DNA from: Bacteroidota bacterium
GTDB taxonomy: Bacteria > Bacteroidota > Bacteroidia > Palsa-965
Direction of reading: 5' to 3'
Length of the DNA: 64,000 bases
Assembly: GCA_006218065.1 (NCBI GenBank)
Contig: VBWE01000030.1
Location: 24,128 to 88,127, forward strand
Each line of letters begins with the position of its first letter. Positions within the stretch are counted from its first letter, which is position 1. A program made the translations under genes and the position numbers. The notes under the pieces were generated by a model. The model did not search any database, was not told where the DNA came from, and worked only from the letters and a program-made list of their open reading frames with translations. Below, piece by piece: positions 838 to 63,770 of this stretch.

Positions 838-910
838 AACGCACAACGCACAATTATCAACAAGGCTTTCCGATGAACATTGAATATGTTTGATATTGTG
901 CGTTGTGTGT
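838..910. repeat. Word-iterated inverted repeat (ACGCACAA word)
   Basis: The left arm contains ACGCACAACGCACAAT and the right arm reads ATTGTGCGTTGTGTGT, its near-perfect reverse complement, with flanking ATCAA/TTGAT also pairing. The arms are built from repeats of an 8-9 nt word. The loop is about 28 nt. It follows the stop of the first gene and could act as a terminator, but no long T-run follows the stem. It is one of several elements in the window with this architecture. Confidence 0.7.
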
Positions 911-1067
911 CTGGAAGAGATAGCTCCCGGGTTTTGCGCTTTCCCGTGTTGAAAGATATTTTTTCGCGGGCCGACAGGAGTTAGAAAAAACAATACACTT
1001 GTCCCACGGAGTACCCGTGAAGCCATCTTTCGCGTAATTTTACACGCAATCCGAACCACAGCAACCG

Positions 1068-2456
1068 ATGAAGAACGAAAATCGTGTGTTTGAGCCTTTC
1101 CTGCTGGTGCTGTGCAGCCTCGTCATTTTTGTCGGCCTGTCTTTTGTCAATACGGAGTTTTCCGCCGCCGGGTATTCCGCCAAAAAAATCCATCTCTTTT
1201 CCGACGTCATCGCTTCAGGCCGCGTGGCCGTTGCACCTGCGGTTGGTCCCGTGGTCAACGATTCCATGATGAAAAAGCGCGGCGTTTTTATGAAACCCGA
1301 TAACAAGCACTCCGCCGAGATCGTGGAGTTCGGCGACGACAGCCTGGGCGGACTGATCCGTTTTTTCATGGCCATCGAGCAGTTGAAAACGAAAGGCAAA
1401 CAGGTCCGCATCGCGTATTTCGGCGATTCGATGATCGAAGGCGACCTGATTTCACAGGATCTGCGTGCGCTGATGCAGGATACCTTTGGCGGCTACGGTG
1501 TAGGATTCATGCCTATCACCTCGATCGTTGCGGGTTTCCGGCAGTCCATTATACATTCGTTTTCCACCAACTGGACGGACCACAACCTGCTGGAGAAAAA
1601 CAGCGGCGGTCATGCGCCGGGAATCACGGGACATACGTTTGTTCCCGCTTTCACCGGCCAGGGCGACAGTACGATTACCGGGAGCTGGGTGAAATACACC
1701 GCACCGAACCGTGCGCGCCTGGATCGTTTTTATAATGTGCGTCTTTTTTATGGGAAGACCGAAAGCGCCTGCTACGTAAACTGCAACAAGCAAAACCATA
1801 AACTCGACGGCGTGAATGCGGTGAACCAGTTGTACGTTAATCGCGGCGGAGCGATCCAGGCTGTACAGGCGGGTTTCAGTTGCGGCGGGCCGCTGGATGT
1901 GTACGGTTTCAGCATGGATACCGACAGCGGAGTTTTCGTGGATAATTTATCGTACAGGGGAAACAGCGGGCTTCCGCTCACGCAAATGCCATATCGTGTG
2001 CTGAACGGTTTGAACCAGCATCTCGATTATGACCTGATCATCCTGCAATACGGTCCGAATGTTGTGAACAGTAAACTGAAAAGCTACGACTGGTATGAAA
2101 AAGGGATGGTAGAAGTGGTGAAACATCTGAAACAGGCTTTTCCCACGGCCAGTATCCTGGTGATCAGCACCGGCGATAAAGGCTATCGTAAAAACGGCGT
2201 GATGGGTACCGATCCCGCCGTGCCGATCCTCGTGGAATCGCAGCGCAAGACCGCGGAAAAAACAGGCGCGGCATTCTGGAATTTGTACCAGGCCATGGGG
2301 GGTGAAGCTTCGATGGTGAAATGGGTGCAGGGCGATACGGTGTATGCGAACAAAGATTATACGCATTTCAATCACCGGGGTGCGAAACGGATCGGGAAGA
2401 TGTTGTTTGACCGGCTGATGAACGAATATAAATCATACAAGAAGAGTGCTACATAA
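1068..2456 (+). CDS. SGNH/GDSL-type esterase-like protein, membrane-anchored
   Basis: This 462-residue protein starts with a hydrophobic span at about residues 10-27 without an obvious cleavage site, so it is probably anchored with a periplasmic body. Block I is FGDSMIEGD with the nucleophile candidate Ser121, and the C-terminal catalytic pair is in DYTHFN (Asp430, His433), as in SGNH hydrolases and the acetyltransferase partners of MBOAT proteins. The downstream gene is a second SGNH protein overlapping by 11 bases, followed by an MBOAT gene. This suggests a role in adding or removing acetyl groups on a surface polymer. The polymer itself cannot be inferred from the sequence. Confidence 0.8.
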   Translation: MKNENRVFEPFLLVLCSLVIFVGLSFVNTEFSAAGYSAKKIHLFSDVIASGRVAVAPAVGPVVNDSMMKKRGVFMKPDNKHSAEIVEFGDDSLGGLIRFFMAIEQLKTKGKQVRIAYFGDSMIEGDLISQDLRALMQDTFGGYGVGFMPITSIVAGFRQSIIHSFSTNWTDHNLLEKNSGGHAPGITGHTFVPAFTGQGDSTITGSWVKYTAPNRARLDRFYNVRLFYGKTESACYVNCNKQNHKLDGVNAVNQLYVNRGGAIQAVQAGFSCGGPLDVYGFSMDTDSGVFVDNLSYRGNSGLPLTQMPYRVLNGLNQHLDYDLIILQYGPNVVNSKLKSYDWYEKGMVEVVKHLKQAFPTASILVISTGDKGYRKNGVMGTDPAVPILVESQRKTAEKTGAAFWNLYQAMGGEASMVKWVQGDTVYANKDYTHFNHRGAKRIGKMLFDRLMNEYKSYKKSAT

Positions 2457-3744: not shown

Positions 3745-3766
3745 CCCAACTCAACAGGATCGGCCG

Positions 3767-3808
3767 AACCAATTCCCCTCTCTGCAGGAGAGGAGTTGGG
3801 GTGAGGTC
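3767..3808. repeat. CCCTCTC/GGAGAGG hairpin repeat
   Basis: CCAATTCCCCTCTC pairs imperfectly with GAGAGGAGTTGG around a TGCA tip, followed by GGGTGAGG. A related CCGCTCTC...GAGAGCGGGCCGGGG element lies at 61763-61804. It separates the SGNH gene from the MBOAT gene. It looks like a dispersed REP-type element rather than an intrinsic terminator because no T-run follows. Confidence 0.6.
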
Positions 3809-3849
3809 TTCCGAACAACAGCAAAAAACAGCAAGAGCGGAATCGTAAC

Positions 3850-5403: not shown

Positions 5404-5432
5404 TTTTTACCCGGCCTATTTTTTAATGCGGA

Positions 5433-5464
5433 TTTGGTTTTTCCGGGTTTTTGATATAGATTTG
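5433..5464 (+). promoter_or_regulatory. Bacteroidota-type promoter for cspA
   Basis: TTTG at 5433-5436 and TAGATTTG at 5457-5464, separated by 20 bases, match the phylum's -33/-7 pattern (TTTG, TAnnTTTG). The start codon follows about 28 bases later. Confidence 0.7.
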
Positions 5465-5491
5465 CGCCTCATCATCAAAAAACAGATCAAA

Positions 5492-5683: not shown

Positions 5684-5703
5684 GTCATAAGTGCATAAAA
5701 CTG

Positions 5704-5738
5704 AAAAGACCCTGTTCGAAAGAACGGGGTCTTTTTAT
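5704..5738 (+). terminator. Rho-independent terminator after cspA
   Basis: GACCCTGTTC pairs with GAACGGGGTC around a GAAA tetraloop, flanked by AAAA and a TTTTT tract. This is a textbook intrinsic terminator. Confidence 0.9.
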
Positions 5739-5837: not shown

Positions 5838-7358
5838 ATGAAAAACCCTGGAATACGCCTATTTGCAGGCATCGTGATCATCCTGGCCAGTTCGGCTTCC
5901 GCGCATGCGCAAAAACTCCCCGGTCTTATTCCTTTCCGCGACAAACAGGGGCTTTTCGGCTATTGCGACAGCATGAAAAAAATCATCATTCCCTGCCGGT
6001 TCGATCGTGCGGAACTTTTTGACGGCGACAGCGCGTTGGTGGAATGGGAGAATAAACAGGGACATATTTTTAAAAACGGGAAAATGGGTAAGGTGGATTC
6101 CAATTTTGTACCGCCGCCGCCGCCGGCCTGGCCGTTTACGTGGATACCCATGACCGTTATGTTCCCCACGTATGTTGTCGAAACGGAATCAAGCCCGAAA
6201 CTCATCCCTGTCCGGGCAAAATCGGGCTTGTATGGCTACATGAACAGGAAAAGCGATACGGCTATTGCCTGCCGGTATAAAACCGCCGATTATTACGCCG
6301 AAGGACTGGCTTTCGTTACCGAAGGTGATTCGGTGAGCGGATTTATCGATGAACAGGGGAAATGGGCGCTCCGGTTCAGCCAGGCGGAAGTTTCCAGCGC
6401 TTCGGCTTTCAAACACGGACTGGCAGAATTCGCTTCGTCAAGAGGCCGGGGCATCATGACTAAAAAAGGAACCTGGATCATACCGCCCATATTCGATCTT
6501 GCGCCGGTGGTTATTGGTCCGGATTGTATTCTTGCCGGGAACTCGGACGCCCGCTTTTTCTGCAATGGGAAAGGCATTCCCGTGGAACCGAAATTCTATT
6601 CGGAAGTGAGTAGCCTCTCGTCCGGAAGAATACTCGTGCAGGATGCGCAGAGCCGGCTTTACGGCTATACGGACGCGAAAGGAAAGCTGGTCATTCCCTG
6701 CATCTATGCGGAAGCCGTCGGTTTTTCCATGAACGCAGCGCCGGCGTGCATGAGCGGCATGGGCTGGGGACTGATTGACCTGCAGGGAAGGAAAATCCTG
6801 CCTTTTGAGTATAACCAGGTCTTTTTCGCCGGGCAGGAATACTCCCTGTTTGTCATCCAGCGGGATGAGCGATACGGGTATTTCAATGCGCGCACGAAAA
6901 AAATGGATATTCCCCTGACCTGGCAGGATGCTTCCGTTTTTGATGAGCGGGGCTGGGCTTCGGTTATGGATACCAGTACCAACAGTTATGGCATGATAAA
7001 CCGGTCGGGCGAAAAGCAGATCGACTTTTTGTACGACGAGCAGATTATATTTTCCGGGGACAGCCTGGCGATTATCAGCCGTGAAAACCGCTTTGGACTC
7101 ATAAACAGGGCGGGGAAGGAAGTCGTTAAACCGGAATACAGCGAACTGAACAGTTTCAACAGTTTCGGCCTGGCCTGGGCGCAGAACTGGGATGGATATT
7201 ATGGTTGCATTAACAATAAAGGTGATACTATTATTGCATTCAAATTCAATACAATATATAATTTTGATGAAGCCGGAATGGCTAAAGTTGAAACCGGGGA
7301 CGGAGCGTACTATATTGACCGGAAAGGGAACGAGTATTTTGAGCCGGTGGAGGAGTAA
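5838..7358 (+). CDS. WG-repeat protein, exported
   Basis: The 506 residues begin with a signal peptide ending in ASAHAQ. The rest is a series of degenerate WG/KWG repeats of the form (L/R)YGYxxxxGKxxIPxxYxxA, for example GLYGYMNRKSDTAI and RLYGYTDAKGKLVIP, roughly every 45-70 residues. WG-repeat proteins are predicted beta-propeller-like or beta-rich surface/periplasmic proteins of unknown function, common in Bacteroidota. A proline stretch (PPPPPA, about residue 91-96) separates the first repeats. No enzymatic residues are evident, and no operon partner is obvious. Confidence 0.85.
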   Translation: MKNPGIRLFAGIVIILASSASAHAQKLPGLIPFRDKQGLFGYCDSMKKIIIPCRFDRAELFDGDSALVEWENKQGHIFKNGKMGKVDSNFVPPPPPAWPFTWIPMTVMFPTYVVETESSPKLIPVRAKSGLYGYMNRKSDTAIACRYKTADYYAEGLAFVTEGDSVSGFIDEQGKWALRFSQAEVSSASAFKHGLAEFASSRGRGIMTKKGTWIIPPIFDLAPVVIGPDCILAGNSDARFFCNGKGIPVEPKFYSEVSSLSSGRILVQDAQSRLYGYTDAKGKLVIPCIYAEAVGFSMNAAPACMSGMGWGLIDLQGRKILPFEYNQVFFAGQEYSLFVIQRDERYGYFNARTKKMDIPLTWQDASVFDERGWASVMDTSTNSYGMINRSGEKQIDFLYDEQIIFSGDSLAIISRENRFGLINRAGKEVVKPEYSELNSFNSFGLAWAQNWDGYYGCINNKGDTIIAFKFNTIYNFDEAGMAKVETGDGAYYIDRKGNEYFEPVEE

Positions 7359-7363
7359 TGAAC

Positions 7364-7468
7364 TTCACTGGTCGGCATAAATAGTCGCATGGAGTCGTCG
7401 TCTTCAGACGACGACTAGCGAAGTTCCCGGAAGACGACTCCACGCGACTATTTATGCCGACCAGTGAA
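7364..7468. repeat. 105-bp nested palindromic element
   Basis: Two perfect 25-base arms (7364-7388 and 7444-7468; the left arm begins TTCACTGGTCGGCATAAATA) enclose 55 bases. Nested inside, TGGAGTCGTC pairs with GACGACTCCA. The centre contains GACGACGACTAGCG. It starts six bases after the WG-repeat stop and lies upstream of the rpmB promoter. No target-site duplication or ORF is visible. The size and layout suit a MITE or REPIN-like element; it could also work as a bidirectional terminator. Confidence 0.85.
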
Positions 7469-7515
7469 ATACTTTTCTGACATTATTCTGTTTCTTCGCA
7501 CATCAAACAAAAAAA

Positions 7516-10268: not shown

Positions 10269-10332
10269 CGAATTTCGAACTCCGAATTTTGAAGTTGTAT
10301 GAAACACTTCGCAATTCGGCATTCGAAATTCG
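10269..10332. repeat. Hairpin repeat, AATTCGGCATTCG word
   Basis: The left arm (10269-10295) and right arm (10306-10332) pair over 27 positions with about four mismatches; both are iterations of ATTCG/CGAATT words. The tip, GAAGTTGTATGAAACACTTC, is the reverse complement, with one change, of the tip of the element at 13951. It lies between two convergent genes. Confidence 0.8.
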
Positions 10333-11519: not shown

Positions 11520-11605
11520 AAGCGAATTCCGAATGCCGAATTTCGAATGTCGAATGCCGAAGTTTAGTCGTAAAAACAATGCACTTCATTGATTCGGCAT
11601 TATTC
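11520..11605. repeat. Hairpin repeat, GAATGCCGAA word
   Basis: The words GAATTCCGAATGCCGAATTT and CGAATGCCGAAG are followed after a short spacer by CACTTC and GATTCGGCATT. The terminal AATGCCGAA/TTCGGCATT arms pair. It is the same word family as the elements at 10269 and 13951, but the tip differs. It lies between two minus-strand genes. Confidence 0.65.
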
Positions 11606-12714: not shown

Positions 12715-12936
12715 GCAAAAGGCAAAAAACAAAAAGCAATGAAAATCAAAAAAACAAAGGGCAAAGGCAAAAAATAGTAAACGTCACACTGAGCGGAGAC
12801 GAAGTGTGTGTAAAACAGACCTGACGTCTTTTTATTTTTTGTTTTTTGTGAGTTGCCTTTTGAAACAGGCCCTTCTGCAAAGCAGTCTCCGGTTATTTGC
12901 CTTTTGCCCTTTGCTATTTGCTTTTGCTTTTTGAAT
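12715..12936. repeat. Composite hairpin repeat, GGCAAAAAGC word
   Basis: This fills most of the 375-base gap before ftsY. The left arm (12715-12776) iterates GCAAAAGGCAAAAAAC-type words, and the right arm (12894-12935) iterates TTGCCTTTTGCCCTTTGC. Inside the loop, at 12785-12808, a second hairpin (CACACT-GAGCGGAGACGA-AGTGTG) belongs to the GAGCGGAGTCGA REP-like type also found at 53160. The same GCAAA word reappears in the elements at 24161 and 55503. Confidence 0.8.
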
Positions 12937-13002: not shown

Positions 13003-13950
13003 ATGGGTATTTTCAGTTTTTTCAGCAAGGACAAAAAAGAAAGCCTCGACCAGGGCCTGGCCAAAACCAAGGAAGGTTTTTTCCAGAAGATTACGCGCGC
13101 CGTAGTCGGCAAATCGGCTGTGGATGCGGAAGTGCTCGATAACCTGGAAGAAGCGCTGATCACGTCCGACGTTGGCGTGGAAACAACCATTAAAATTATC
13201 CGCCGGATAGAAGAACGCGTTTCCAGAGACAAATACGTCGGTACTTCGGAACTGAACGCGATCATGAAAGAAGAAATCGCTTCGCTGCTGGCGGAAAACA
13301 ATACCGAGGACCTGAAAGATTTCGTAATTCCCGCCGATAAAAAGCCCTACGTGATCATGGTAGTCGGTGTAAACGGCGTGGGAAAAACGACAACCATCGG
13401 TAAACTCGCATACGCCTTTAAAAAAGCGGGCAAGAGCGTGATGCTCGGAGCCGCCGATACTTTCCGCGCCGCCGCAGTCGATCAACTCGTCATCTGGTCC
13501 AAACGCGTGGACGTGCCCATCGTGGCACAGGCTATGGGGTCCGACCCGGCATCTGTGGCATTCGATACGCTGAACTCGGCGGTTTCCAAAGGAACCGACG
13601 TAGTGATCATCGATACGGCCGGACGTTTGCACAACAAAGTGAACCTGATGAACGAACTGTCGAAGATCAAAAAAGTGATGCAGAAAGTCGTTCCCGACGC
13701 TCCGCACGACGTGTTGCTTGTACTCGACGGTTCCACCGGCCAGAACGCGATAAACCAGTGCCGCGAATTCACCGCCGCAACCGATGTCACCGCATTGGCC
13801 GTAACCAAGCTCGACGGAACAGCCAAAGGCGGCGTGGTGATCGGTATTTCCGACCAGTTCAAAATCCCGGTAAAGTATATCGGGGTAGGCGAGAAGATGG
13901 AAGACCTGCAGGTATTCAACAAACACGAGTTCGTGGACTCGTTGTTCTAA
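13003..13950 (+). CDS. ftsY: Signal recognition particle receptor
   Basis: A 315-residue SRP GTPase. The helical N domain (about 1-105) starts MGIFSFFSKDKK. The NG GTPase motifs are GVNGVGKTTTIGKLA (P-loop), AADTFRAAA, DTAGRLHNK and TKLDGTAKGG, with a C-terminal YIGVGEKMEDL. It docks ribosome-SRP complexes at the membrane. The acidic A domain of E. coli FtsY is absent, as in many Bacteroidota. I chose ATG 13003 because the longer frame runs back through a repeat element. Confidence 0.96.
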   Translation: MGIFSFFSKDKKESLDQGLAKTKEGFFQKITRAVVGKSAVDAEVLDNLEEALITSDVGVETTIKIIRRIEERVSRDKYVGTSELNAIMKEEIASLLAENNTEDLKDFVIPADKKPYVIMVVGVNGVGKTTTIGKLAYAFKKAGKSVMLGAADTFRAAAVDQLVIWSKRVDVPIVAQAMGSDPASVAFDTLNSAVSKGTDVVIIDTAGRLHNKVNLMNELSKIKKVMQKVVPDAPHDVLLVLDGSTGQNAINQCREFTAATDVTALAVTKLDGTAKGGVVIGISDQFKIPVKYIGVGEKMEDLQVFNKHEFVDSLF

Positions 13951-14006
13951 TGCCGAAGTGTTTTATACAACTTCAATATTCGGCATTCGCAATTCGGAGT
14001 TCGATC
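13951..14006. repeat. Hairpin repeat, TGCCGAAGTG / ATTCGG word
   Basis: This fills the space between convergent ftsY and the TonB-dependent receptor gene. It contains GAAGTGTTTTATACAACTTC, the same core as the element at 10269 in the opposite orientation, followed by ATTCGGCATTCGCAATTCGG. It may serve as a bidirectional terminator. Confidence 0.75.
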
Positions 14007-16667
14007 CTAAAACTTCGCTATTAAACGTACACTAAGCTGCCGGTTGGTGAGATAATTCGGAATGCCGTACAAACGCCCGGTCACGTCTTTTACCCAGTAA
14101 TACGAAACGGTATTGTTTACCTGCAGCAGGTTGTACACTTCGGCTCCGATCCAGAGCGATTTCATGAAACGGAACGGGTTGGATTCTTTCAGCGGCTTTT
14201 CTTCTTTGATCACCTGGTAGGAAAAACCGATATCCACGCGGCGGTAAGGAGGCATGCGCAGAACGGCCAGGTGCCGCTGGTGGTTGGGTGGTCCGAAAGG
14301 AAGACCCGTACCGACAACCAGCCCGAGGCTCATCTTGCAGTCGGGAAGCATAGGCAGGTAATCCTGGAAGTACATGGAAAAATTCACGATCTGGTCCGTA
14401 GGACGCGGAATGAAACCGGGAGCATTGACGATACTGTCGACCGCGATATTATTCACCGTGTAGCCGGGATAAATCGTATCGCCGTCGCTGTTCAGGTAAA
14501 TCACGAACCGGTCGTTATATAAATTTTCACGCGTGCGCAGGATGGAAAGATTTACCCACGAATCCGCTTTGCGCACAAACTGTCCGTTCAGTTTGAAGTC
14601 GATACCGTACGCGTAACCGTAAGCCTGGTTTTCGCCGAAATAGCGCAGGCGGACATCCGTTACTTCGTAAGGCACCAGGTTGTCGAGGTATTTGTAATAC
14701 GCTTCGGTGATGAAACGGAAAGGCCGGTTCCAGAGTTTGAAATGAATATCGCCGCCGAGTACGGCGTGGACAGCGGTCTGCGCTTTTACATTCTTGTGCA
14801 CGGTTCCGTTGAAATCGCGCAGTTCACGGTAAAACGGGGGCTGGCTGTAAAGTCCGCCCGCTACGCGGAAAGAAGCCTGGCGTTTCCAGTGCGGTTTCCA
14901 GGAAAGATTCACGCGCGGGCTCACGATCGTTTGCCCGTTCATGTTCCAGTAATGGCTGCGCACGCCGGCATTCAGTTCGAGCTGCGAAGTGTCGCGCAGT
15001 TTCCAGTTCCAGATATGCTGCACGAAAGCCATCGCCCGCGACGAAGCCAGTTCTGCTTTGCCTTTGATCAGGCCCTGCACTTCGAGCACTTCCAGCGGGT
15101 AGAACGGGATCGAATAACCTGCCGAATCCACCAGGCCCCATTCGCTCAGCTCGTCGGTAATCTGCTCGTGCTGGTAACGCAGTCCCCAGGAAAGAATGGA
15201 ATTATTCGCGTTGTACGTGTAATCGCCTTTATGCTCACCGTTAATGACAAGTGCATCGAGAAAGTTCCGCGCATGATTAAGATATCCGCCCACGCCGCGG
15301 TTAAAAGCCACCTGCCCGAAAGTCGGTTTTCCGAAATCCGTTTCCAGCTGATCGATATAATATGCGCCTTCGATATCGAAGGTTTCATTTTCGGAAGAGA
15401 AGAAAGAGGAACCGATAAATCTCAGCCGAAGCCGTTCGTTCGGGTGCATGTAATTCAACGCAAGCGCATTGAAATTCGTTTTGAAACTGTTCACTTCCTG
15501 CCCCTCGAAAAACACCGTAAAGCGCAGCGCCTGGTTCAGCGTGCCGAATTCGGTTTCGCGCGTTTCGGGTCGCAGTTCGTATTTGTTCTGCGCGTAATTG
15601 CCGAGATAATCGAGCCGCCAGTGTTCGGTAAAATTATACGTCAGGAAAGCCTGCACATCGGTGAACGAAGTGGTGTAATCGCCGCGCGTATCGAGTTTGT
15701 TCAGCAGGTAACGGTTGCTTTTCTGCCGCGCGCCAAGCATCCAGGTAAACCGTTCGTCTTTCGAAATGCCTTCCACTTCAAAACTTCCACCGAGCAGTCC
15801 CGCGGAAAAAGTGCCTCCGAATTTTTTCGGCCGGCGGTAGGTGATATCGAGCACCGACGACATGGCATCGCCGTATTTCGCTTCATAGCCGCCCGCGGAA
15901 AAAAATACGCGATCCACCATGTCGCCGTTCACGATGGTCAGTCCTTCCTGCTGCCCGGAGCGCGTGATCAATGGACGATACACTTCGATGCCGTTGATGT
16001 AAAGTTTGTTTTCGTCAAAACTTCCGCCGCGGATGGAGTATTGCGAACTCAGTTCGTTGTTTACCGAGCCGCCGATCACCAGGCGGAGCGCACCGATGAA
16101 ATCGCCGCTGGGGCTGGGAATATTCTGGATCGGCCCGGGAGGAAAATAATCGCCGGTGCCGAGTACGCCATACACTTCGGTGGTATCGCCGCCTTTGGGT
16201 TCGAGCTCAATCGCGAAATTTTTTATTTCCCCGGCCGTGAGCTTTACGGGAACATCATACCGTTTGAACCCGGTAAGCTGTACGGTGATCATCAGCGGCT
16301 GGCCTGCCGGGACGGTGAGTGTGAAATTTCCTTTAGCGTCGGTGAACGTTCCCTTGCTTTTTCCGCCGAGAATATACCCGACTGCGGCCGATTCCACAGG
16401 GCTGCCTTCCGGACCGGTGACGCGGCCGGTAATGGTTGCTTCCTGCGCGAGAGCCGGCAGGGTGAGTGCGAAAGCAAACAGGAGGAAAACGGAGCGTATC
16501 AGTTTACAGTTGGCAGTTGGCAGTTTCTGTTTTACAGGGATGTCGTCAAAAACCAGGAACTTCCGCTTATACAAGACAAAATTGCCAACTGTAAACTGCA
16601 AACGGCCAACTGCAAACCGGAATAACGACTTGATTGAAAAACGAATCTTTGAAATTTCCGCGGGCAT
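14007..16667 (-). CDS. TonB-dependent receptor with N-terminal regulatory-like domain
   Basis: After a signal sequence (RSVFLLFAFALTLPALAQ) comes a carboxypeptidase-regulatory-like beta-sandwich (ATITGRVTGPEGSPVESAAV). A plug domain follows (YSIRGGSFDENKLYINGIEV, then VVNGDMVDRVFF-like), and then a long outer-membrane barrel ending in an aromatic-terminated strand (LSVRLIAKF). It should import a ligand in a TonB-dependent manner; the ligand is unknown. The start is uncertain: ATG 16667 gives a 65-residue extension translated from a word-iterated repeat (16500-16618), and no ATG lies between that repeat and the signal sequence. It is 17 bases downstream of the partner gene. Confidence 0.85.
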   Translation of the reverse strand: MPAEISKIRFSIKSLFRFAVGRLQFTVGNFVLYKRKFLVFDDIPVKQKLPTANCKLIRSVFLLFAFALTLPALAQEATITGRVTGPEGSPVESAAVGYILGGKSKGTFTDAKGNFTLTVPAGQPLMITVQLTGFKRYDVPVKLTAGEIKNFAIELEPKGGDTTEVYGVLGTGDYFPPGPIQNIPSPSGDFIGALRLVIGGSVNNELSSQYSIRGGSFDENKLYINGIEVYRPLITRSGQQEGLTIVNGDMVDRVFFSAGGYEAKYGDAMSSVLDITYRRPKKFGGTFSAGLLGGSFEVEGISKDERFTWMLGARQKSNRYLLNKLDTRGDYTTSFTDVQAFLTYNFTEHWRLDYLGNYAQNKYELRPETRETEFGTLNQALRFTVFFEGQEVNSFKTNFNALALNYMHPNERLRLRFIGSSFFSSENETFDIEGAYYIDQLETDFGKPTFGQVAFNRGVGGYLNHARNFLDALVINGEHKGDYTYNANNSILSWGLRYQHEQITDELSEWGLVDSAGYSIPFYPLEVLEVQGLIKGKAELASSRAMAFVQHIWNWKLRDTSQLELNAGVRSHYWNMNGQTIVSPRVNLSWKPHWKRQASFRVAGGLYSQPPFYRELRDFNGTVHKNVKAQTAVHAVLGGDIHFKLWNRPFRFITEAYYKYLDNLVPYEVTDVRLRYFGENQAYGYAYGIDFKLNGQFVRKADSWVNLSILRTRENLYNDRFVIYLNSDGDTIYPGYTVNNIAVDSIVNAPGFIPRPTDQIVNFSMYFQDYLPMLPDCKMSLGLVVGTGLPFGPPNHQRHLAVLRMPPYRRVDIGFSYQVIKEEKPLKESNPFRFMKSLWIGAEVYNLLQVNNTVSYYWVKDVTGRLYGIPNYLTNRQLSVRLIAKF
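16500..16618. repeat. Hairpin repeat, CAGTTGGCAGTT word, at a gene start
   Basis: The left arm (16500-16529) reads CAGTTTACAGTTGGCAGTTG and onward. The right arm (16580-16618) contains GCCAACTGTAAACTGC and GGCCAACTGCAAACC. Both are iterations of a roughly 10-nt word. It directly abuts the codons of the TonB receptor's signal peptide. Confidence 0.8.
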
Positions 16668-24100: not shown

Positions 24101-24160
24101 GCAATACTCCTCAAAGTACGATTGCTGAAAACGGATAATTTATTTCGGAAGACTTTAGAT

Positions 24161-24341
24161 CAAAAAACAAAAAGCAAAATGCAAACGGCAAAAAGCAAAC
24201 AAATCGGTTTATGGAAAAAGGAATTGCCATTTGCCATTTGCTTTTTGCTTTTTATTAAGTACAAAATGCAAACAGCAACACGTGATAAAATGAATACAGG
24301 AAAAAGGAAATTGCTTTTTGCATTTTGCTTTTTGCCTTTTC
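24161..24341. repeat. Two tandem hairpins of the GCAAAAAGC word at a gene start
   Basis: The first hairpin has its left arm at 24161-24201 (AAAAGCAAAATGCAAACGGC) and right arm at 24224-24256 (TTGCCATTTGCCATTTGC). The second pairs ACAAAATGCAAACAGC (24261) with TTGCATTTTGC (24316-24331). The right end touches the first codon of the next gene's signal peptide. Confidence 0.75.
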
Positions 24342-24343
24342 AT

Positions 24344-26314
24344 TTGAATATACGCCATTTCGCACTCTTACTTTTGCTCGTTGTACCGGATGCCGTTTCC
24401 GCAGCGCCCGTTTCAGAAGCGGACCTGCAGAAGAAAGCGGATATTCTCTACAACCGCCGCGAATACGAGCTTGCCTATGATTACTACCTGCGGCTGAAAT
24501 CCATACAGCCAGCCAAACTGCTGTACGAATTCCGTGCAGGAGTTTGCGCCATTTATTCGGGCGACGCGGTTACCGCGCTCGGTTTCCTGAAAGGATGCAT
24601 TGAAAAAGACACCGCGCTCACCGATATTCATTTCTTCCTCGGCCGGGCCTATCTTTTAAACAACAAGCCCGACGAAGCCCGTACCTATTTCATGAAGCAG
24701 GCTTCAAAAGAAACGGATGAAGCCCAGCGGAAAAAACTGCAGTACTGGGTGTATTACTGCAACAACGCTATCGAACAAATGGCGAAACCGGTAAATGCCA
24801 ACGTGCAGAATGCCGGCCGCCCTGTAAATACACCCGGAGATGAATTTGCACCCGTGCTTATGCCGGATAATATGGGCATGTGGTTCACGTACAAAGGCAC
24901 GCAAAGCACCGGCGGAAAAATGCGCGTATTCGGCCGCAACGATTCGGCGGGGTATTACCTCGAAGACGTACTCGATTGCCGGATGACCAACAACGGCTGG
25001 TCGATCCCGCTCCCGCTGAGCGACAGTGTAAACACCGCGAAGCACGACGCCTGCACGGCCGTTTCTCCCGACGGGCTGCACCTGTATATTTACCGGAGCT
25101 CACCGAAAGACGGCGGCGATATTTACGTTTGCCACAAACGCGGACTGGACTGGAGCCGCCCGGAAAAAATCCTAGGCGAAATTAATACGCCGGCGTGGGA
25201 GGGCAGCATCAGTTTTGCAGCGGACGGAAAAACGGCCTATTTCGCCAGCGAGCGTGAAGGCGGTTATGGCGGAAAAGATATTTACCGGAGCACATTGAAA
25301 GACGACGGTACCTGGGGAAATATCGAAAACCTCGGGCCTAATATCAATACGGAGATGGACGACGATGCGCCGTTTCTTTTCGAAGAAGGCAAACGCATGT
25401 CGTACGCATCGAAAGGACAAAACAGCATCGGCGGTTATGATATTTTTATTTCGGAGCTGCTGCCCGACGGAAAAACATGGAAAGAAGGCGTAACGATCGG
25501 CTACCCGGTAAACAGTACCATGGACGATATTTATTACGCACCGAACCCGGATGGATTTTCCGCTTATCTCTGCTCCAACCGCGCGGGCGGAAACGGCGGG
25601 ATGGATATTTACATCAGTGAACCCGGCATGCCCGCGAAAGCCGGCGACCTGGTACTCATCAAAGGCATTGTAACGCTCGACGATCTTCCTGCCGCCGCCG
25701 CCGTTTCGGTTACTGCCGGCGGAAAAGATTCGCTGGTGGGCGATTACCGCAGCAACGGGGCTTCCGGCCGCTATGCCGTTTCGCTTCCGCCTGGAAACGA
25801 TTATAAAGTAACCTTCATCATGAGCGGCTGCATCGATTCGGTAAAATCATTCAATGCTTCCGATGTAAGCAGCTTTGTAGCCAAATCGTTTGATGTTGCG
25901 TTTTACTCCGCGGAATATAAACGCGTGCACTACGAACGTTTCGGCGTGAAGGACACCAGTACGTTTACCAAAAAACTGCTTTTCCTTTCCGGCGACGAGA
26001 TTACGCTTCCGAACGGGGAAAAAACGGTTGTCCGCCGCGACTCCAGCAAAACGTACCAGGACGAAAAAGGACAAACGATGGGGCAGGGTATGTTTATCGT
26101 GATCGGTTCGTTTAAAAATGCGCCGTATGCCAAACGCCTGCAGGCCAAAATCAAAAATGATAAGGTATATCCAGCGCACGACCTGGTGTATAACCGCGAA
26201 AACGGATTTACTTACGTGGTTGTTGCACGCCCGAAATCAACGGAAGAAGCCGCCGACTGGGTAACACGCGCAAGAAAAGAATATCGCGATGCCTGGATTC
26301 AGCAACTCGAATAA
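24344..26314 (+). CDS. PD40 beta-propeller and SPOR-domain protein (T9SS-associated type)
   Basis: I place the start at a TTG (24344), which gives a normal signal peptide ending AVSAAP. In-frame ATGs at 24122-24291 would translate the repeat element upstream. The domains are TPR-like helices (30-130), WD40-like PD40 propeller blades (about 150-440, with GSISFAADGKTAYFASEREG and GYDIFISEL), a carboxypeptidase-regulatory-like sandwich, and a C-terminal SPOR domain (GMFIVIGSFKNAPYAKRL onward). This resembles PorE-like proteins, except that SPOR replaces the usual OmpA-like peptidoglycan-binding domain. Next to the adhesin and PorP/SprF gene it probably ties the secretion/attachment machinery to peptidoglycan. 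Confidence 0.82.
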   Translation: MNIRHFALLLLLVVPDAVSAAPVSEADLQKKADILYNRREYELAYDYYLRLKSIQPAKLLYEFRAGVCAIYSGDAVTALGFLKGCIEKDTALTDIHFFLGRAYLLNNKPDEARTYFMKQASKETDEAQRKKLQYWVYYCNNAIEQMAKPVNANVQNAGRPVNTPGDEFAPVLMPDNMGMWFTYKGTQSTGGKMRVFGRNDSAGYYLEDVLDCRMTNNGWSIPLPLSDSVNTAKHDACTAVSPDGLHLYIYRSSPKDGGDIYVCHKRGLDWSRPEKILGEINTPAWEGSISFAADGKTAYFASEREGGYGGKDIYRSTLKDDGTWGNIENLGPNINTEMDDDAPFLFEEGKRMSYASKGQNSIGGYDIFISELLPDGKTWKEGVTIGYPVNSTMDDIYYAPNPDGFSAYLCSNRAGGNGGMDIYISEPGMPAKAGDLVLIKGIVTLDDLPAAAAVSVTAGGKDSLVGDYRSNGASGRYAVSLPPGNDYKVTFIMSGCIDSVKSFNASDVSSFVAKSFDVAFYSAEYKRVHYERFGVKDTSTFTKKLLFLSGDEITLPNGEKTVVRRDSSKTYQDEKGQTMGQGMFIVIGSFKNAPYAKRLQAKIKNDKVYPAHDLVYNRENGFTYVVVARPKSTEEAADWVTRARKEYRDAWIQQLE

Positions 26315-52860: not shown

Positions 52861-52929
52861 AACCACAGAGACACAGAGAACACGGAGGAACACAGAGTCT
52901 CCGAGGTTCTCTGTGTATTCCGTGGTAAA
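52861..52929. repeat. Hairpin repeat, CACAGAGA word
   Basis: ACCACAGAGACACAGAGAAC, followed by ACGGAGG, pairs with CTCCG and GGTTCTCTGTGTATTCCGTG. It follows the phosphatase stop and is the first element in the 488-base gap before btuB. Confidence 0.8.
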
Positions 52930-53033
52930 TTTTGAAACTTCTCCCGGTCGTTTTGTTGCTGATTCCCGGGAATTGAATTTTATCCGAAGTACTCCTCTGG
53001 AGAAAATTGTTTTTCCTACCTTCGCCACCGCAA

Positions 53034-53240
53034 ACGGTTCCGGTCTGAACATTTCCGACCGGATTAAAAGGGAATCCCGTGTAAAACGGGAGCTGTACCC
53101 GCAACTGTAAGCTCGTTCGTCAGCATACCGTACGAATTTGCGCCTTCTGCATACCACTGTTATTACCGTCAGGTCGAGCGGAGTCGAGACCCGGTAATAA
53201 TGGGAAGGTGGCGCCAGAGCAAGCCAGGAGACCTGCCGCA
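53034..53240 (+). ncRNA. Cobalamin riboswitch (with REP-like insertion)
   Basis: The conserved parts are AAAAGGGAATCCCGTGTAAA (core), GAGCTGTACCCGCAACTGTA, and the B12 box AAGCCAGGAGACCTGCC (53221-53237). It precedes btuB by about 105 bases and should repress it when adenosyl- or other cobalamins are abundant. The peripheral arm between the core and the B12 box is enlarged by a 41-base hairpin (53160-53200). Confidence 0.93.
53160..53200. repeat. GAGCGGAGTCGA REP-like hairpin inside the riboswitch
   Basis: TTATTACCG pairs with CGGTAATAA; between them lies TCAGG-TCGAGCGGAGTCGA-GACC. The GAGCGGAGxCGA tip also occurs in the loop of the repeat before ftsY (12791-12802). Confidence 0.75.
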
Positions 53241-53345
53241 GGCACATTTCAATTCATGCTTCGGGTAAAAAGCAGTGAATGCGAAGACTCCATGCTTCCG
53301 TTCCACTTTTTACTCCTTTTGTCAAACCTTTTAAACCATTGCACC

Positions 53346-55502: not shown

Positions 55503-55586
55503 CAAAAAAGCAAAGGGCAAAATGCAAAAAACAAAATAGTGTATAAGAAGAATTGCTTTTTGCTTTTGCCCTTTGCTTTTTATTAA
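55503..55586. repeat. Hairpin repeat, GCAAAGGGCAAA word
   Basis: Left arm 55503-55536 (AAAAAAGCAAAGGGCAAAAT), right arm 55553-55586 (TTGCTTTTTGCTTTTGCCCT). The same word family occurs at 12715 and 24161. It sits between btuB and the DUF6580 gene, inside what should be one operon. Confidence 0.8.
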
Positions 55587-55598
55587 AGCGACACATGC

Positions 55599-56833: not shown

Positions 56834-56880
56834 AGTAGCTGCGTACTGTGAGCGTTTCTTCGTATTCCTGTTCTGGAATA

Positions 56881-57013
56881 ATCTTCACCGCAGAGACGCC
56901 GGGACGCAGAGTTTACGCAGAGGTATTTCTCTGCGGCGGAGCATGTGCGGCCTGTCCGCCGTACAACTCTGGCAGGCGGGCTGACTCAGCGTCTCCGCGC
57001 CTGCGGTGAAGAT
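56881..57013. repeat. Hairpin repeat, ACCGCAGAGACGC word
   Basis: ATCTTCACCGCAGAGACGCC (left) pairs with GCGTCTCCGCGCCTGCGGTG and AAGAT (right). The inner loop contains CTCTGCGGCGGAG-type words. It lies between the ends of the DUF71 gene and speA (convergent). Confidence 0.75.
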
Positions 57014-57025
57014 TCCGCAAAAGCT

Positions 57026-59468: not shown

Positions 59469-59474
59469 AATATT

Positions 59475-59586
59475 TACCGCAGAGGCGCGGAAGAAAATCT
59501 GTTTTACAGGGTCTTCGCTAATCGACGACTCAGTCGTCGACTAGCTGAGTCTATTTAAAGACGACTAATTGCGTCTTCGCGGTGAA
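59475..59586. repeat. Hairpin repeat before argS
   Basis: TTTACCGCAGAGGCGC pairs with GCGTCTTCGCGGTGAA. Inside, TCGACGACT-C-AGTCGTCGA is a perfect hairpin followed by CTAGC, which recalls the centre of the element at 7364-7468. It occupies nearly the whole gap between arginase and argS. Confidence 0.7.
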
Positions 59587-59603
59587 GAAAAGGAATACAG
59601 ACT

Positions 59604-61397: not shown

Positions 61398-61762
61398 GTC
61401 TGCAGTACTTTCTGTTTTCCATTTTTTTACCGCGGAGCCGCCGGGAACGCTGAGCCAACCCCACATCCTCTGCCGCAGAGATTGTAATGCCCTGCGCTTT
61501 TAATTTTAACGACGGTACGACAAAAGGTTTGCCGATCGGCGGATATGACCATACGGATACGCTGCGCTGCCTGCGCAGGCAGCCTTTCTTCAATATCGGG
61601 CTTTCGCGTTTGGCGCGCCGCCCGGCCGGGAAAGACTAAGTTCCGGCCACTGTTCACAAATCCCTGTTTATAACTGCCTGTCGCCGAACGGAAACCGCGG
61701 TGACACATTCCCTAAACTTGTTCAGGATTTATCCCCCGGTACTAAGGACCTGGAAACTACTT

Positions 61763-61804
61763 CCGCTCTCTTTCGCCTTGCGCGGGAGAGAGCGGGCCGG
61801 GGTC
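61763..61804. repeat. CCGCTCTC hairpin repeat
   Basis: CCGCTCTCT pairs with AGAGAGCGG around a 15-base tip and is followed by GCCGGGGTC. Related in layout to the element at 3767. Confidence 0.6.
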
Positions 61805-61823
61805 TGAACTTGGCGTTTTTCGT

Positions 61824-61920
61824 TTGACAAATGTAAAATGACAAATTTCAAATGATAAAGTCCAAAGTGTTATCGTTATGACTTTTTCATTTGTTATTTG
61901 GCATTTTACATTTGAAATTC
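61824..61920. repeat. Hairpin repeat, AAATGACAAATTT word
   Basis: Left arm 61824-61860 (GACAAATGTAAAATGACAAA), right arm 61884-61920 (CATTTGTTATTTGGCATTTT). It ends 9 bases before the ATG of the substrate-binding protein gene. Confidence 0.75.
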
Positions 61921-61929
61921 TTTTAACAG

Positions 61930-63585
61930 ATGAACTACATTACCTATAAGCCGCGCACGATTATCAGCCTGCTGGTCGCTGGTTTTATGCTGACCACCTG
62001 CGGTGATAAACAGCAGGAAGGCAAGCACAAACTTTTCCGGTACAATGAGCTCGGCGATGTGAATTCGCTTGATCCTGCGCAGGCGGCGGATTTCGAGAGC
62101 GGCTGGGTGGTCAACCAACTGTACAACGGGCTGGTGGAACTGGACAACGATCTGCACGTGCAGCCTTGTCTTGCAAAATCGTGGACGGTGAGCGAGGACG
62201 GGAAAGAGTATACGTTCCTGCTGCACGACAGCGTATTTTTTCACGACGATGCCTGTTTTGAAGGCGGGAAAGGCCGTAAAGTGGTTGCTTCCGATTTCGA
62301 ATTCAGTTTCGACCGGCTTTTCAATAAAAAAATCTCCAAGGCATCCACGCTGGTGGACATGATCGACCGCGATCCGGCCAAAGGCAAAACAGGATTCGAA
62401 GCGAAGGACGATCATACCTTCATCATTCACCTGAAAGCGCCGTTTGCCCCGTTCATCAGCATCCTGGCGATGAAATATTTTTCGGTGCTGCCGAAAGAAG
62501 CGGTGACACATTACGCCGAAAGTTTCAGCCGCCATGCGGTCGGCACAGGGCCTTTCATGTACAAGAACTGGGTGGAAGGTGTGAAACTGGTGCTCGTAAA
62601 AAATCCGAATTATTTCCGCACGGACGAAAAAGGTGTGCGCCTGCCGTATCTCGACGGGGTGGTGGTAAATTTTATCCGCGATCCCGAATCCGCTTTCCTG
62701 CAGTTCATGAGCGGCGATCTCGATATGCTTTCCGGCATGGATGCCATCAACAAAGAAAAAGTGCTGGAGAAAAACGGCGAGCTGAAAAGCGCGATGCAGG
62801 ATAAATACATGCTGCTGAGCCGGCCTTTCCTGAAAACGGATTATCTCGGCGTGCTGGTGGATGAAAAGCTGGATATCGTGCTGAACTCGCCCCTGCGGAA
62901 AAAACTCATGCGCCAGGCGCTGAACTACGGCCTCGACCGGCAGAAAATGATCCGTTACCTGCGCTACAGCCTGGGAACGCCCGCTGAAGCCGGTTTTATG
63001 CCGCCCGTTCTGCTAGGCAAGTACGGCAAATCGGTGGAAGGATATGAATACAATCCGCAGCTCGCCAAACAACTACTCAGGGAAGCGAAGTACGAAAACA
63101 ACGCGAATACGCCGCCGGTCGTGCTTTTCACCACCAAGCAGTACAACGACATCGCCGAGTTTGTACGCAACCAGTGGAGCGAAATCGGCGTGAAAGTAGA
63201 GATCAACGTGATGGAACCTTCACCGTTTAAATCGGCCGTGTCGAATGCGAAAGTCAATCTCTTCCGCAAATCGTGGGTAGGTGATTATCCCGACGCGGAA
63301 AATTTCATGTCCGTTTTTTACAGCAAGAATTTCTGCCCCGAAGGAAGCAATTACATGCATTTCAGCAACCCGCTTTTCGATAAATTGTACGAACGGAGCA
63401 TGATCGAGCAAAATGACACGGTCCGCGCCGATCTCTTCCGCCAGATGGACCAGATCGTGATCAACGAAGCGCCCGTAATTCCGTTGTACTATGACCAGGC
63501 CGTGCGGCTCGTGCAGAAAGGGGTAGAAAATATGACAATGGATCCCACCAATATGCTGAACCTGGAACGCGTTTCGAAGAAGTAG
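61930..63585 (+). CDS. Peptide-type ABC transporter substrate-binding lipoprotein
   Basis: A 551-residue lipoprotein (lipobox FMLTTC). SBP_bac_5 family signatures include VNSLDPAQAADFESGWVVNQ, LAKSWTVSEDGKEYTFLL, VGTGPFMYKNWVEGVKLVL and a C-terminal APVIPLYYDQAVRLVQK. It should bind oligopeptides or similar solutes in the periplasm for an ABC importer. No permease or ATPase genes are in the window after it, so its partners are elsewhere. Confidence 0.9.
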   Translation: MNYITYKPRTIISLLVAGFMLTTCGDKQQEGKHKLFRYNELGDVNSLDPAQAADFESGWVVNQLYNGLVELDNDLHVQPCLAKSWTVSEDGKEYTFLLHDSVFFHDDACFEGGKGRKVVASDFEFSFDRLFNKKISKASTLVDMIDRDPAKGKTGFEAKDDHTFIIHLKAPFAPFISILAMKYFSVLPKEAVTHYAESFSRHAVGTGPFMYKNWVEGVKLVLVKNPNYFRTDEKGVRLPYLDGVVVNFIRDPESAFLQFMSGDLDMLSGMDAINKEKVLEKNGELKSAMQDKYMLLSRPFLKTDYLGVLVDEKLDIVLNSPLRKKLMRQALNYGLDRQKMIRYLRYSLGTPAEAGFMPPVLLGKYGKSVEGYEYNPQLAKQLLREAKYENNANTPPVVLFTTKQYNDIAEFVRNQWSEIGVKVEINVMEPSPFKSAVSNAKVNLFRKSWVGDYPDAENFMSVFYSKNFCPEGSNYMHFSNPLFDKLYERSMIEQNDTVRADLFRQMDQIVINEAPVIPLYYDQAVRLVQKGVENMTMDPTNMLNLERVSKK

Positions 63586-63646
63586 GTTTTTCCGCGAAGT
63601 TTTCTTTTCCCATTTAACGTCACTTTAAATCGCGATGTATTTGCTA

Positions 63647-63770
63647 AGCGGCAGTGGCAGTCGGCAGGAGGCAGGAGGCAGTCTCCGTATTACAGAAATG
63701 TCACCGAAAATCCCAGGCGACATGCGAGCGTACCAAATGACTACCGCTGCCGACTGCCTCCTGCCGCTGA
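63647..63770. repeat. Hairpin repeat, GGCAGTCGGCAGGAGG word
   Basis: AGCGGCAGTGGCAGTCGGCA then GGAGGCAGGAGGCAG pairs with CCGCTGCCGACTGCCTCCTG then CCGCTG. Loop about 58 bases. It lies between two plus-strand genes. Confidence 0.75.

What the first reader, a model, noticed from the sequence alone, without database searches (positions are those of the whole stretch)
838..63770. A class of hairpins defined by architecture rather than sequence: arms made of an iterated short word
At least ten gaps (838, 10269, 11520, 12715, 13951, 16500, 24161, 52861, 55503, 56881, 61824, 63647) hold inverted repeats whose arms are themselves tandem iterations of a 7-12 nt word. Examples of the word are ACGCACAA, ATTCGGCATTCG, GGCAAAAAGC, CAGTTGGCAGTT, CACAGAGA, CGCAGAGACG, AAATGACAAATTT and GGCAGGAGGCAG. 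The words have no similarity between families, yet the build is the same: arm of iterated word, 15-120 nt loop, complementary arm, always at gene borders. A shared generating process, for example template switching or slippage on folded single strands, would explain the same form with different letters. REP/REPIN elements normally share sequence, which these do not across families.
Basis: partly seen in the sequence, partly recalled or inferred. Interest (0 to 1): 0.72.

Follow-up and report, generated by a model that had tools for sequence, protein, structure and literature searches.

The report
Word-armed hairpin mobile elements
The gaps between genes in this bacterium hold hairpins whose arms repeat a short DNA word, and they are most likely stripped-down copies of small mobile elements whose complete forms, found in this and many other bacteria, carry one of two little-studied genes between arms of the same build.

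Summary
In 864 kb of this genome 78 detections (71 places) have iterated-word arms, against none in six shuffled copies. The usual word is a heptad, five fixed letters and two variable.

Some word families are related: GGCAG, CAGTT and CGTTT hairpins share loops, and copies with loops are dispersed.

Complete versions exist. In this genome all four PF05635 genes (23S-rRNA-IVP; one broken) and three of four GxxExxY genes lie between such arms; none of 139 small genes in the sample reach that flank score. The pattern recurs in Bacteroidota and on some plasmids of other phyla. Word class follows the protein tree. Elements sit inside co-directional gene pairs. One thiG|thiH gap across a genus shows gene-bearing, gene-less and empty states.

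Best reading: ORF-less members of an element class related to 23S rRNA intervening sequences, predicted to be moved by proteins that recognise the word. Transposition, word binding and RNase III processing are untested; dependence on the genes in trans tested inconclusive. Template switching may still shape the arms.

The parts
835..914 (.). hairpin, word ACGCACA (heptad), arms 835-854 / 895-914
   Evidence: IR p=0.007, period p=0.020
10269..10332 (.). hairpin, word CGAATNN, arms 10269-10295 / 10306-10332
   Evidence: p=0.003, 0.003
11523..11561 (.). one-sided CGAATNN heptad array without an inverted partner (solo arm)
   Evidence: IR p=0.75, period p=0.003
12716..12933 (.). compound hairpin, word GCAAANN, between a DUF4295 gene and ftsY; its loop is homologous to that of C41:75522-75767
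   Evidence: p=0.037, 0.003; gene names
13949..14003 (.). weak or half hairpin of CGAATNN type, arms 13949-13957 / 13979-13987, behind ftsY; end set by eye
   Evidence: IR p=0.28, period p=0.007
16500..16622 (.). hairpin, word CAGTTNN; loop TTACAGGGATGTCGTCAAAA shared with CGTTT- and GGCAG-word hairpins elsewhere in the genome
   Evidence: p=0.003, 0.003
24154..24348 (.). compound hairpin, word GCAAANN, several mutually complementary arms
   Evidence: p=0.003, 0.003
52862..52926 (.). hairpin with the CACAGAGN word (8-9 nt) that elsewhere flanks GxxExxY genes
   Evidence: p=0.003, 0.040
55505..55581 (.). hairpin, word GCAAANN
   Evidence: p=0.003, 0.020
56880..57014 (.). hairpin with the CGCAGAGACG word that elsewhere flanks GxxExxY genes, arms 56880-56912 / 56984-57014
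   Evidence: IR p=0.007, period p=0.086
59474..59587 (.). probable CCGCAGAGGCG hairpin seen by eye (outer arms not tested apart), with a REP-like palindrome 59517-59545 in its loop
   Evidence: sequence; palindrome
61828..61914 (.). hairpin, word CAAATNN; 88% identical over 93 nt to C20:236779-236871, match ends within about 10 nt of the hairpin ends
   Evidence: p=0.003, 0.003
63647..63768 (.). hairpin, word GGCAGNN; copy at C78:94832-94933 (84% over 98 nt)
   Evidence: p=0.020, 0.003

Best explanation
The window's hairpins are most likely gene-less members of a class of small operon-dwelling mobile elements whose complete members carry, between arms of the same iterated-word build, either a four-helix-bundle gene (PF05635, the S23/IVP protein of 23S rRNA intervening sequences) or a GxxExxY gene (PF13366, predicted Cas4-like PD-(D/E)XK nuclease).

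Shown here: the arms are arrays of a 7 nt (IVP type in Bacteroidota) or 8-11 nt (GxxExxY type) word, mostly oriented outside to inside; the same build flanks both gene families in Bacteroidota and on plasmids of other phyla; the word class follows the protein lineage; gene-bearing, gene-less and empty states occur at one orthologous site; copies with their loops are dispersed; different-word families can share a loop; gene-bearing elements read in the direction of the surrounding genes; the nuclease's catalytic residues are invariant in 29 sequences and the gene is under purifying selection at one site.

Inferred, not shown: the element settles directly behind stop codons inside transcription units, where its RNA would fold into a long stem that RNase III could cut, making the insertion tolerable, as in rRNA intervening sequences. 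Its protein would bind the word array, each unit being one binding site, and act on the hairpin so that it is copied to a new place; gene-less hairpins with a matching word would be moved in trans, like MITEs. Slippage and arm-to-arm copying on the folded strand would keep both arms alike and let the word drift in both at once.
For: Chance: 78 detections (71 places) against 0 in six shuffled 864 kb sets.

Gene link in own genome: 4 of 4 PF05635 (one broken) and 3 of 4 PF13366 genes have flanking arms with pair score >=18; in the 864 kb sample 0 of 139 genes of 80-200 aa and 7 of 460 longer genes do.

Gene link elsewhere: IVP loci score >=18 in 39 of 83 and >=25 in 17 of 83, against 4.5% and 0 of 664 mismatched flank pairs (83 of 84 loci, L187 left out as too short). 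GxxExxY loci >=14 in 30 of 33, >=18 in 19 of 33, against >=18 in 9 of 264 mismatched pairs.

Pitch: best flank lag 7 in 55 of 84 IVP loci (13 in 15, 6 in 7); 8-11 in 37 of 38 GxxExxY loci, 7 in none; flanks 770-900 nt away show no such peak.

Word follows protein: GxxExxY tree (43 rows, 39 labelled) 8 changes against shuffled mean 18.3, 0 of 200 as low; IVP tree (76 rows, 68 labelled) 6 against 14.0, 0 of 200.

Orthologous site thiG|thiH, 30 loci of one genus: 15 with GxxExxY and GCAGATT words, 13 gene-less CGCAAAG hairpins, 1 empty, 1 other palindrome. bioF|bioD, 30 loci: 9 gene-bearing by motif, 10 with gaps of 6-106 nt, 11 with longer gaps and no motif match.

Selection: median dN/dS 0.063 (49 of 55 within-clade pairs); own arms pair better than clade-mates' arms, permutation p=0.012.

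Operon position: upstream gene co-directional in 68 of 72 IVP and 29 of 32 GxxExxY loci; both neighbours in 62 of 72 and 26 of 32. Gene-less hairpins start a median 28 nt behind the stop codon in 35 co-directional gaps.

Dispersal and word drift.

Against: No movement was observed and no target-site duplication or precise empty-site junction could be read, because no near-identical genomes were at hand. The prediction that gene-less hairpins need the protein in trans was tested and is inconclusive: Spearman 0.42, p=0.09 over 17 genomes of 40 kb each, rich against poor p=0.26, and G031 with one IVP and no GxxExxY gene has hairpins. Pitch 7 is not a rule for IVP: of nine cyanobacterial plasmid loci the flank lags are mostly 8-9. 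L007 (GxxExxY) in the own genome has only direct repeats. At the thi site the own partner arm ranks first within its clade in only 5 of 15, and the outer arms of L216, L227 and L234 are decayed. Word polarity has exceptions: C78:2471 and the best pair of the Gemmatirosa locus L312. Foldseek found no PDB match at E<=0.001. Low dN/dS and conserved arms could equally mean a host function. Neither protein family has a known transposition activity.
Confidence: 0.6

Rival explanations
1. Host-made RNA-processing or regulatory sites: the hairpins are 3'-end or inter-cistron stems kept by selection for mRNA processing or binding of a regulator, and the small genes are host factors that bind them. This is how a Geobacter genome paper read similar hairpins of tandem heptanucleotides ('predicted global regulator binding sites', PMC2700814, passages seen).
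For: Position just behind stop codons and over-representation in convergent gaps (20 of 62 against 39 of 265 gaps; divergent 7 of 62 against 55 of 265); arms co-vary; GxxExxY under purifying selection.
Against: The same orthologous gap holds different words, gene-bearing, gene-less and empty states within one genus; relatives at ftsY lack the hairpins or have other words (7 detections in 12 stretches of 6.6-20 kb); the gene lies inside its own hairpin and the word follows the gene's lineage, not the host's.
Confidence: 0.22
2. Independent generation without descent: slippage and template switching on folded strands build such hairpins anew from any word.
For: Arms of one hairpin are more alike than arms of the same family; fold-back copies of the left arm in 5 of 15 thi elements.
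Against: Homologous loops between hairpins with different words, dispersed copies with loops, recurrent association with two gene families and congruence with their trees, word on the 5' arm in 47 of 47 classified hairpins. The process may still maintain arms.
Confidence: 0.1
3. RNA-mediated spread: the folded transcript is reverse transcribed and inserted, with the IVP protein as helper like its homologue Avd in diversity-generating retroelements.
For: Own-genome IVP proteins L001 and L003 match the Avd model below its cut-off (43.1 and 30.6 bits against 80); gene-bearing elements are sense-oriented in transcription units.
Against: No RVT_1 match in a genome rated 99.98% complete; GxxExxY elements have the same build with a nuclease and no Avd.
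Confidence: 0.08

Closest known systems
23S rRNA intervening sequences (IVS) with the S23p/IVP gene (Salmonella, Leptospira, Coxiella)
   Same: Long stem with the PF05635/TIGR02436 gene in the loop; the Coxiella IVS has tandem heptamers (GACAGAT) ahead of the gene and is excised by RNase III (PMC4990558, abstract and passages).
   Different: The elements here lie between protein genes; most copies lack the gene; words differ by family; a second gene family (GxxExxY) occupies the same position; RNase III processing is untested.
Geobacter metallireducens multicopy hairpins of tandem heptanucleotides, 'predicted global regulator binding sites' classes 1-4 (PMC2700814, passages)
   Same: Paired, strand-switching sites with tandem heptanucleotides (class 3: fifteen of sixteen sites with five repeats, MTYCTGA); class 4 said to resemble multicopy sequences in many genomes.
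   Different: Read there as regulator sites; the passages seen link them to no enclosed gene, word turnover or element state.
TAACTGA heptamer repeats of Beggiatoaceae, Cyanobacteria and Bacteroidetes (PMC4679880, abstract and passages); STRR heptanucleotides of cyanobacteria (recalled; only a search listing seen)
   Same: Intergenic heptads in the same phyla; the reverse complement TCAGTTA holds the CAGT core that dominates IVP arms.
   Different: Described as direct repeats, horizontal spread with 'no mechanism' evident; the link to IVP elements is my inference.
REP/REPIN with RAYT (TnpA_REP)
   Same: Dispersed extragenic hairpins, many copies per genome.
   Different: Word-iterated arms; no Y1 transposase linked. 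The genome's RAYT-like gene L009 has a different palindrome.
MITEs
   Same: Many short gene-less inverted-repeat copies (71 places in 864 kb) beside rare gene-bearing ones (seven in the whole 5.26 Mb genome).
   Different: No known transposase, no target duplication read, arms are iterated words and not a fixed terminal repeat.

Membership tests
23S rRNA intervening sequence (IVS/IVP) | gene of PF05635/TIGR02436 in the loop of a stem | tested here: met
   4 of 4 PF05635 matches of the genome; TIGR02436 for the three scanned. Not met by the window's own hairpins, which have no gene
23S rRNA intervening sequence (IVS/IVP) | sits in a helix of the 23S rRNA gene | tested here: not met
   Rfam finds no rRNA in 20 of 84 IVP loci scanned, the four own ones included; 72 of 84 have ORFs within 450 nt on both sides. 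The other loci were not scanned for rRNA
23S rRNA intervening sequence (IVS/IVP) | tandem heptamers beside the gene | tested here: met
   lag 7 best in 55 of 84 IVP loci; known for Coxiella from PMC4990558
23S rRNA intervening sequence (IVS/IVP) | excised from RNA by RNase III | not testable with these tools
   no RNA data
REP/RAYT | Y1 (HUH) transposase linked to the repeat | tested here: not met
   2 Y1_Tnp matches in the genome; L009 has its own palindrome, L010 none of it; no word hairpin seen by eye in the 260 nt before or 390 nt after either match
REP/RAYT | copies of one family share sequence | tested here: met
   within word families yes, loops included
MITE | dispersed gene-less copies with inverted ends | tested here: met
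MITE | target-site duplication / precise empty site | tested here: inconclusive
   empty orthologous gaps exist but relatives are too diverged to read the junction
MITE | mobilised in trans by a gene-bearing relative | tested here: inconclusive
   density against gene count, Spearman 0.42, p=0.09, 17 genomes
Diversity-generating retroelement | reverse transcriptase | tested here: not met
   no RVT_1 match in the genome
Cas4/RecB-type PD-(D/E)XK nuclease (for GxxExxY) | fold and catalytic D / ExK (and QxxxY) residues | tested here: met
Cas4/RecB-type PD-(D/E)XK nuclease (for GxxExxY) | nuclease activity | not testable with these tools
   no assay

The most novel reading that the evidence does not exclude
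A bacterial mobile-element class in which the end sequence is not a fixed terminal repeat but an array of a short word matched to the element's own small protein: the protein family sets the pitch (7 nt for the four-helix-bundle protein in Bacteroidota, 8-11 nt for the GxxExxY nuclease), the protein lineage sets the letters, and the folded strand copies arm to arm so that the word can drift in both arms at once. rRNA intervening sequences would be the branch of this class that happened to land in rRNA, and the heptad repeats reported in cyanobacteria, Beggiatoa and Geobacter would be its solo arms.
Probability: 0.3. Interest if true: 0.88.

Novelty: new variant of a known kind. Interest (0 to 1): 0.76.

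Why it matters
It gives two widespread orphan protein families (S23/IVP four-helix-bundle proteins and GxxExxY) a genomic setting and a testable role, joins scattered reports of heptad repeats and rRNA intervening sequences into one class, and offers a case where a recognition site can change its letters while keeping its protein. Whether IVS elements are or were mobile has been debated since the 1990s (hypotheses quoted in PMC4990558, passages); gene-bearing, gene-less and empty states at one operon gap across a genus make it directly testable.

Tried and rejected

Empty-site comparison with near relatives of the window's genome: no same-genus genome was among the 30 genomes searched as relatives, and family-level relatives at ftsY differ too much; moved to another genus with many species.

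Trans-dependence of gene-less hairpins: inconclusive. G031's 7 counts are overlapping calls of about two places; some AT-rich detections of other genomes there may not be word hairpins.

'Pitch is set by the protein everywhere': rejected as a rule, since cyanobacterial IVP loci have lags of mostly 8-9.

Weak spots of the trees: row L086 has an impossible branch length, probably read on the wrong strand, and was left in; L191 was labelled AGATT by stray counts although its arms read CATTTAAG-like; 4 'other' rows were not counted; of 15 thi and 7 bio rows only 2 and 3 were used. In one search, 8 of 84 rows with stop codons in the matched stretch were left out, 8 of the remaining 76 had no clear word, and L004 is a long branch. 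Family words for the polarity count were chosen by eye from the list; of the 9 unclassified hairpins 4 scored as pointing the other way on fewer than three word copies, C78:2471 clearly so.

Rfam on the window: only a cobalamin riboswitch at gathering scores, so no word hairpin matches a curated RNA family there.

Literature: (all ten searches) listed no paper that I could see ties word-armed hairpins to IVP or GxxExxY genes; the library holds open-licence papers only and most hits were seen as listings, so this does not show absence from print. Read as passages only: PMC8934634, PMC4990558, PMC2700814, PMC4679880. All other papers: listings.
Full report
Check of the observation. The window lies in a 5.26 Mb, 81-contig draft genome rated 99.98% complete. 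Inverted repeats and tandem arrays were listed with two tools and the gaps read by eye. A detector for ungapped inverted repeats plus arm periodicity was run on the window and 800 kb more of the genome. The extra contigs were long ones already seen to hold matches, so the density may be biased upward. It found 78 periodic-armed hairpins (9 in the window, 21, 26 and 22 in the three other pieces), 71 places after merging overlaps, and none in six block-shuffled copies. Without the periodicity filter the counts were 203 against a shuffled mean of 9.3. The lag is 7 in 56 of 78 and 8 in 11. A few of the 78 do not look like word hairpins by eye.

The word. The period-7 families read as five fixed plus two variable letters: CGATTNN, CGAATNN, TGAGANN, GCAAANN, CAAATNN, GGCAGNN, CAGTTNN/CGTTTNN. 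Of 56 period-7 hairpins 47 were classified with words chosen by eye, and in all 47 the word stands on the 5' arm, read from outside to inside. Of the nine not classified, four scored the other way on few copies, C78:2471 clearly so. Arms of the same hairpin match better (0.79) than arms of different hairpins of the family (0.65), so the variable letters tend to be shared between the two arms of one hairpin.

Position. By a simple gene caller 63 of 78 have arms under 30% coding. In 35 co-directional gaps the hairpin begins a median 28 nt after the upstream stop codon. Convergent gaps are over-represented (20 of 62 against 39 of 265) and divergent gaps under-represented (7 of 62 against 55 of 265).

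The enclosed genes. Two small gene families recalled as occurring near such repeats were searched in the genome. PF05635 (23S rRNA IVP) has 4 matches, one of them (L002) broken by a TGA, and PF13366 (PDDEXK_3) has 4. The seven unbroken proteins are TIGR02436 'four helix bundle protein' (three) and TIGR04256 'GxxExxY protein' (four) in NCBIfam. All 4 IVP genes and 3 of 4 GxxExxY genes lie between iterated-word inverted arms, with words GCAAAAN, AGTAGC, GGCAGTC and CGATTNN for IVP, and CGCAGAG (two) and CGCAGATT for GxxExxY; L007 has only direct CGCAATGG repeats. In the 864 kb sample 0 of 139 genes of 80-200 aa reach the same flank score, and 7 of 460 longer genes do.

Other bacteria. PF13366 was found in 75 of 148 genomes drawn from the phylum. 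Of the 33 loci examined (4 own, 29 delivered as loci from the best matches), 30 have flank arm pairs scoring >=14 and 19 score >=18, against 9 of 264 mismatched flank pairs >=18. With the four own loci and without L187, 39 of 83 score >=18 and 17 of 83 score >=25, against 4.5% and 0 of 664 for mismatched flanks; both nulls are inflated by words shared between loci. The best lag near IVP genes is 7 in 55 of 84, 13 (6+7) in 15 and 6 in 7. Near GxxExxY genes it is 8-11 in 37 of 38 and never 7. Flanks 770-900 nt away show no such peak. The core CAGT outnumbers its reverse complement 312 to 51 on the 5' side and 326 to 65 on the reverse-complemented 3' side of IVP genes. On plasmids, 12 of 39 records with a match were read. 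Eight of nine cyanobacterial IVP genes stand between arms (pair scores 14-31) with words such as GCAGGGGA, of 8-9 nt with one of 7 (L305); the ninth (L309) has heavy direct repeats on both flanks, pair score 4. Of three GxxExxY genes, Bernardetia has CACAGAG arms (20), Gemmatirosa a perfect CGCAGAGG pair (32) whose polarity is reversed and whose gene matched in two pieces, and Treponema weak ACACGGATTCG arms (12). The 7 nt pitch is therefore a rule for Bacteroidota IVP loci and not for the family at large.

Word follows gene. On a 43-row GxxExxY tree the three word classes need 8 changes against a shuffled mean of 18.3 (0 of 200 as low). Eleven AGATT-class rows from several host families, one of them from this genome, form one group, while this genome's CAGAG rows lie elsewhere. 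On a 76-row IVP tree the classes need 6 changes against 14.0 (0 of 200). Arms and gene thus behave as one inherited unit.

States at one site. In one species-rich genus the thiG|thiH gap (names checked: PF05690, TIGR02351) was read in 30 loci, the best 30 of 60 genomes with a match among 150 searched. Fifteen carry a GxxExxY gene with GCAGATT words, 13 a gene-less CGCAAAG hairpin, one (L235) a 53-nt gap without either, and one (L238) another palindrome. At the bioF-like|bioD gap (the bioF match is below its cut-off), 9 of 30 carry the gene by motif with ACGGATT-type arms, 10 have gaps of 6-106 nt, and 11 have longer gaps without a motif match. GxxExxY at the thi site is under purifying selection: median dN/dS 0.063 in 49 of 55 pairs. 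Synonymous sites are near saturation (median pS 0.63), so the exact value is rough. A locus's own arms pair better (24.1) than arms of clade-mates (20.2), permutation p=0.012, though the own partner ranks first in only 5 of 15. In 5 of the 15 an inverted copy of the left arm sits beside it with a 13-33 nt loop, before the gene; in three of these the outer arms are decayed. Loss of the gene and the far arm would leave a hairpin like those of the window; this route is inferred.

Transcription. Where both neighbours are within 450 nt (72 of 84 IVP and 32 of 38 GxxExxY loci), the upstream gene runs in the direction of the enclosed gene in 68 of 72 and 29 of 32, and both neighbours do so in 62 of 72 and 26 of 32. 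Symmetric arms would allow either orientation, so the gene-bearing elements appear to depend on, or be tolerated only with, read-through in the sense direction. Rfam finds no rRNA in the 20 of 84 IVP loci scanned, the four own ones included.

Dispersal and drift. Hairpins with loops recur at other places of the genome, the best at 80-95% identity: window 61828 against C20:236779, 88% over 93 nt, and C20:172321 against C20:183146, 88% over 114 nt, end near the hairpin ends; C78:109025 against C78:111054, 93% over 131 nt and inverted, runs on into an outer layer. Among 60 hairpins with loops of 25-200 nt, 86 loop pairs exceed the maximum (14.5) of 1764 letter-shuffled comparisons, 38 of them between hairpins with different word labels. 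Twenty-six of those 38 join the GGCAG, CAGTT and CGTTT families through a common loop (TTACAGGNATGTCGTCAAAATC); 11 involve a hairpin with no clear label, and overlapping hairpins are counted twice. These families are therefore related by descent, with the word changed in both arms.

What does not fit. The genome has no RVT_1 match, so an RNA-copying route is unlikely here. Its two Y1_Tnp genes are not linked to the words; one of them, L009, stands beside a GTCGACTAG palindrome that also occurs at window 59517-59545, so a RAYT/REP-like pair coexists as a separate family. Hairpin density across 17 genomes does not significantly follow the number of IVP and GxxExxY genes (Spearman 0.42, p=0.09; rich against poor p=0.26). 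No insertion junction could be read.

Conclusion. The window's hairpins are best read as gene-less members of a class of operon-dwelling elements related to 23S rRNA intervening sequences, with two alternative small genes and word-iterated arms. Shown: the build, the gene link, co-inheritance of word and gene, element states at one site, dispersed copies and word drift. Inferred: movement by the enclosed proteins, binding of the word, RNase III processing, and the fold-back route to gene-less forms.

Noticed in passing
window 53018-53254: Cobalamin riboswitch (Rfam RF00174, 82.7 bits), just behind the CACAGAG hairpin and ahead of the 763-aa ORF listed at 53208.
   Followed up: no
window 59517-59545; L009 2026-2055: A REP-like palindrome (CTAGTCGACGACTCAGTCGTCGACTAG in L009) stands right behind a Y1_Tnp (RAYT-like) gene, and a close variant lies in the loop of a word hairpin of the window: a RAYT/REP-like pair in the same genome.
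   Followed up: partly
window 7354-7478: The longest inverted repeat of the window (49-nt arms, 88%) has no iterated word and holds GACGACGACTAG in its loop; it looks like a facing pair of the REP-like units.
   Followed up: no
L009 2050-2200: Four to five direct, slightly varied copies of CGAAGACCCTTTTCCACGGACTCGTGTAA behind the Y1_Tnp gene.
   Followed up: no
L007 1240-1490: The one GxxExxY gene of the genome without inverted arms is preceded by a long run of direct CGCAATGG/CGCAATGA repeats.
   Followed up: no
C78:192942-193109, C41:70266-70428, C78:109000-111201: Two-layer hairpins: outer CGATT words with an inner TTAGCGTC/ACCGCGAAG hairpin whose ACCGC end faces the loop; one neighbouring pair is inverted with respect to each other.
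   Followed up: partly
L304, L308, L314, L315: On four cyanobacterial plasmids the IVP element sits beside a tyrosine recombinase gene.
   Followed up: no
L251, L259 (bioF|bioD gaps): One-sided CGCAAAG-type arms without a partner in otherwise short gaps, perhaps remnants of excised or decayed hairpins.
   Followed up: no
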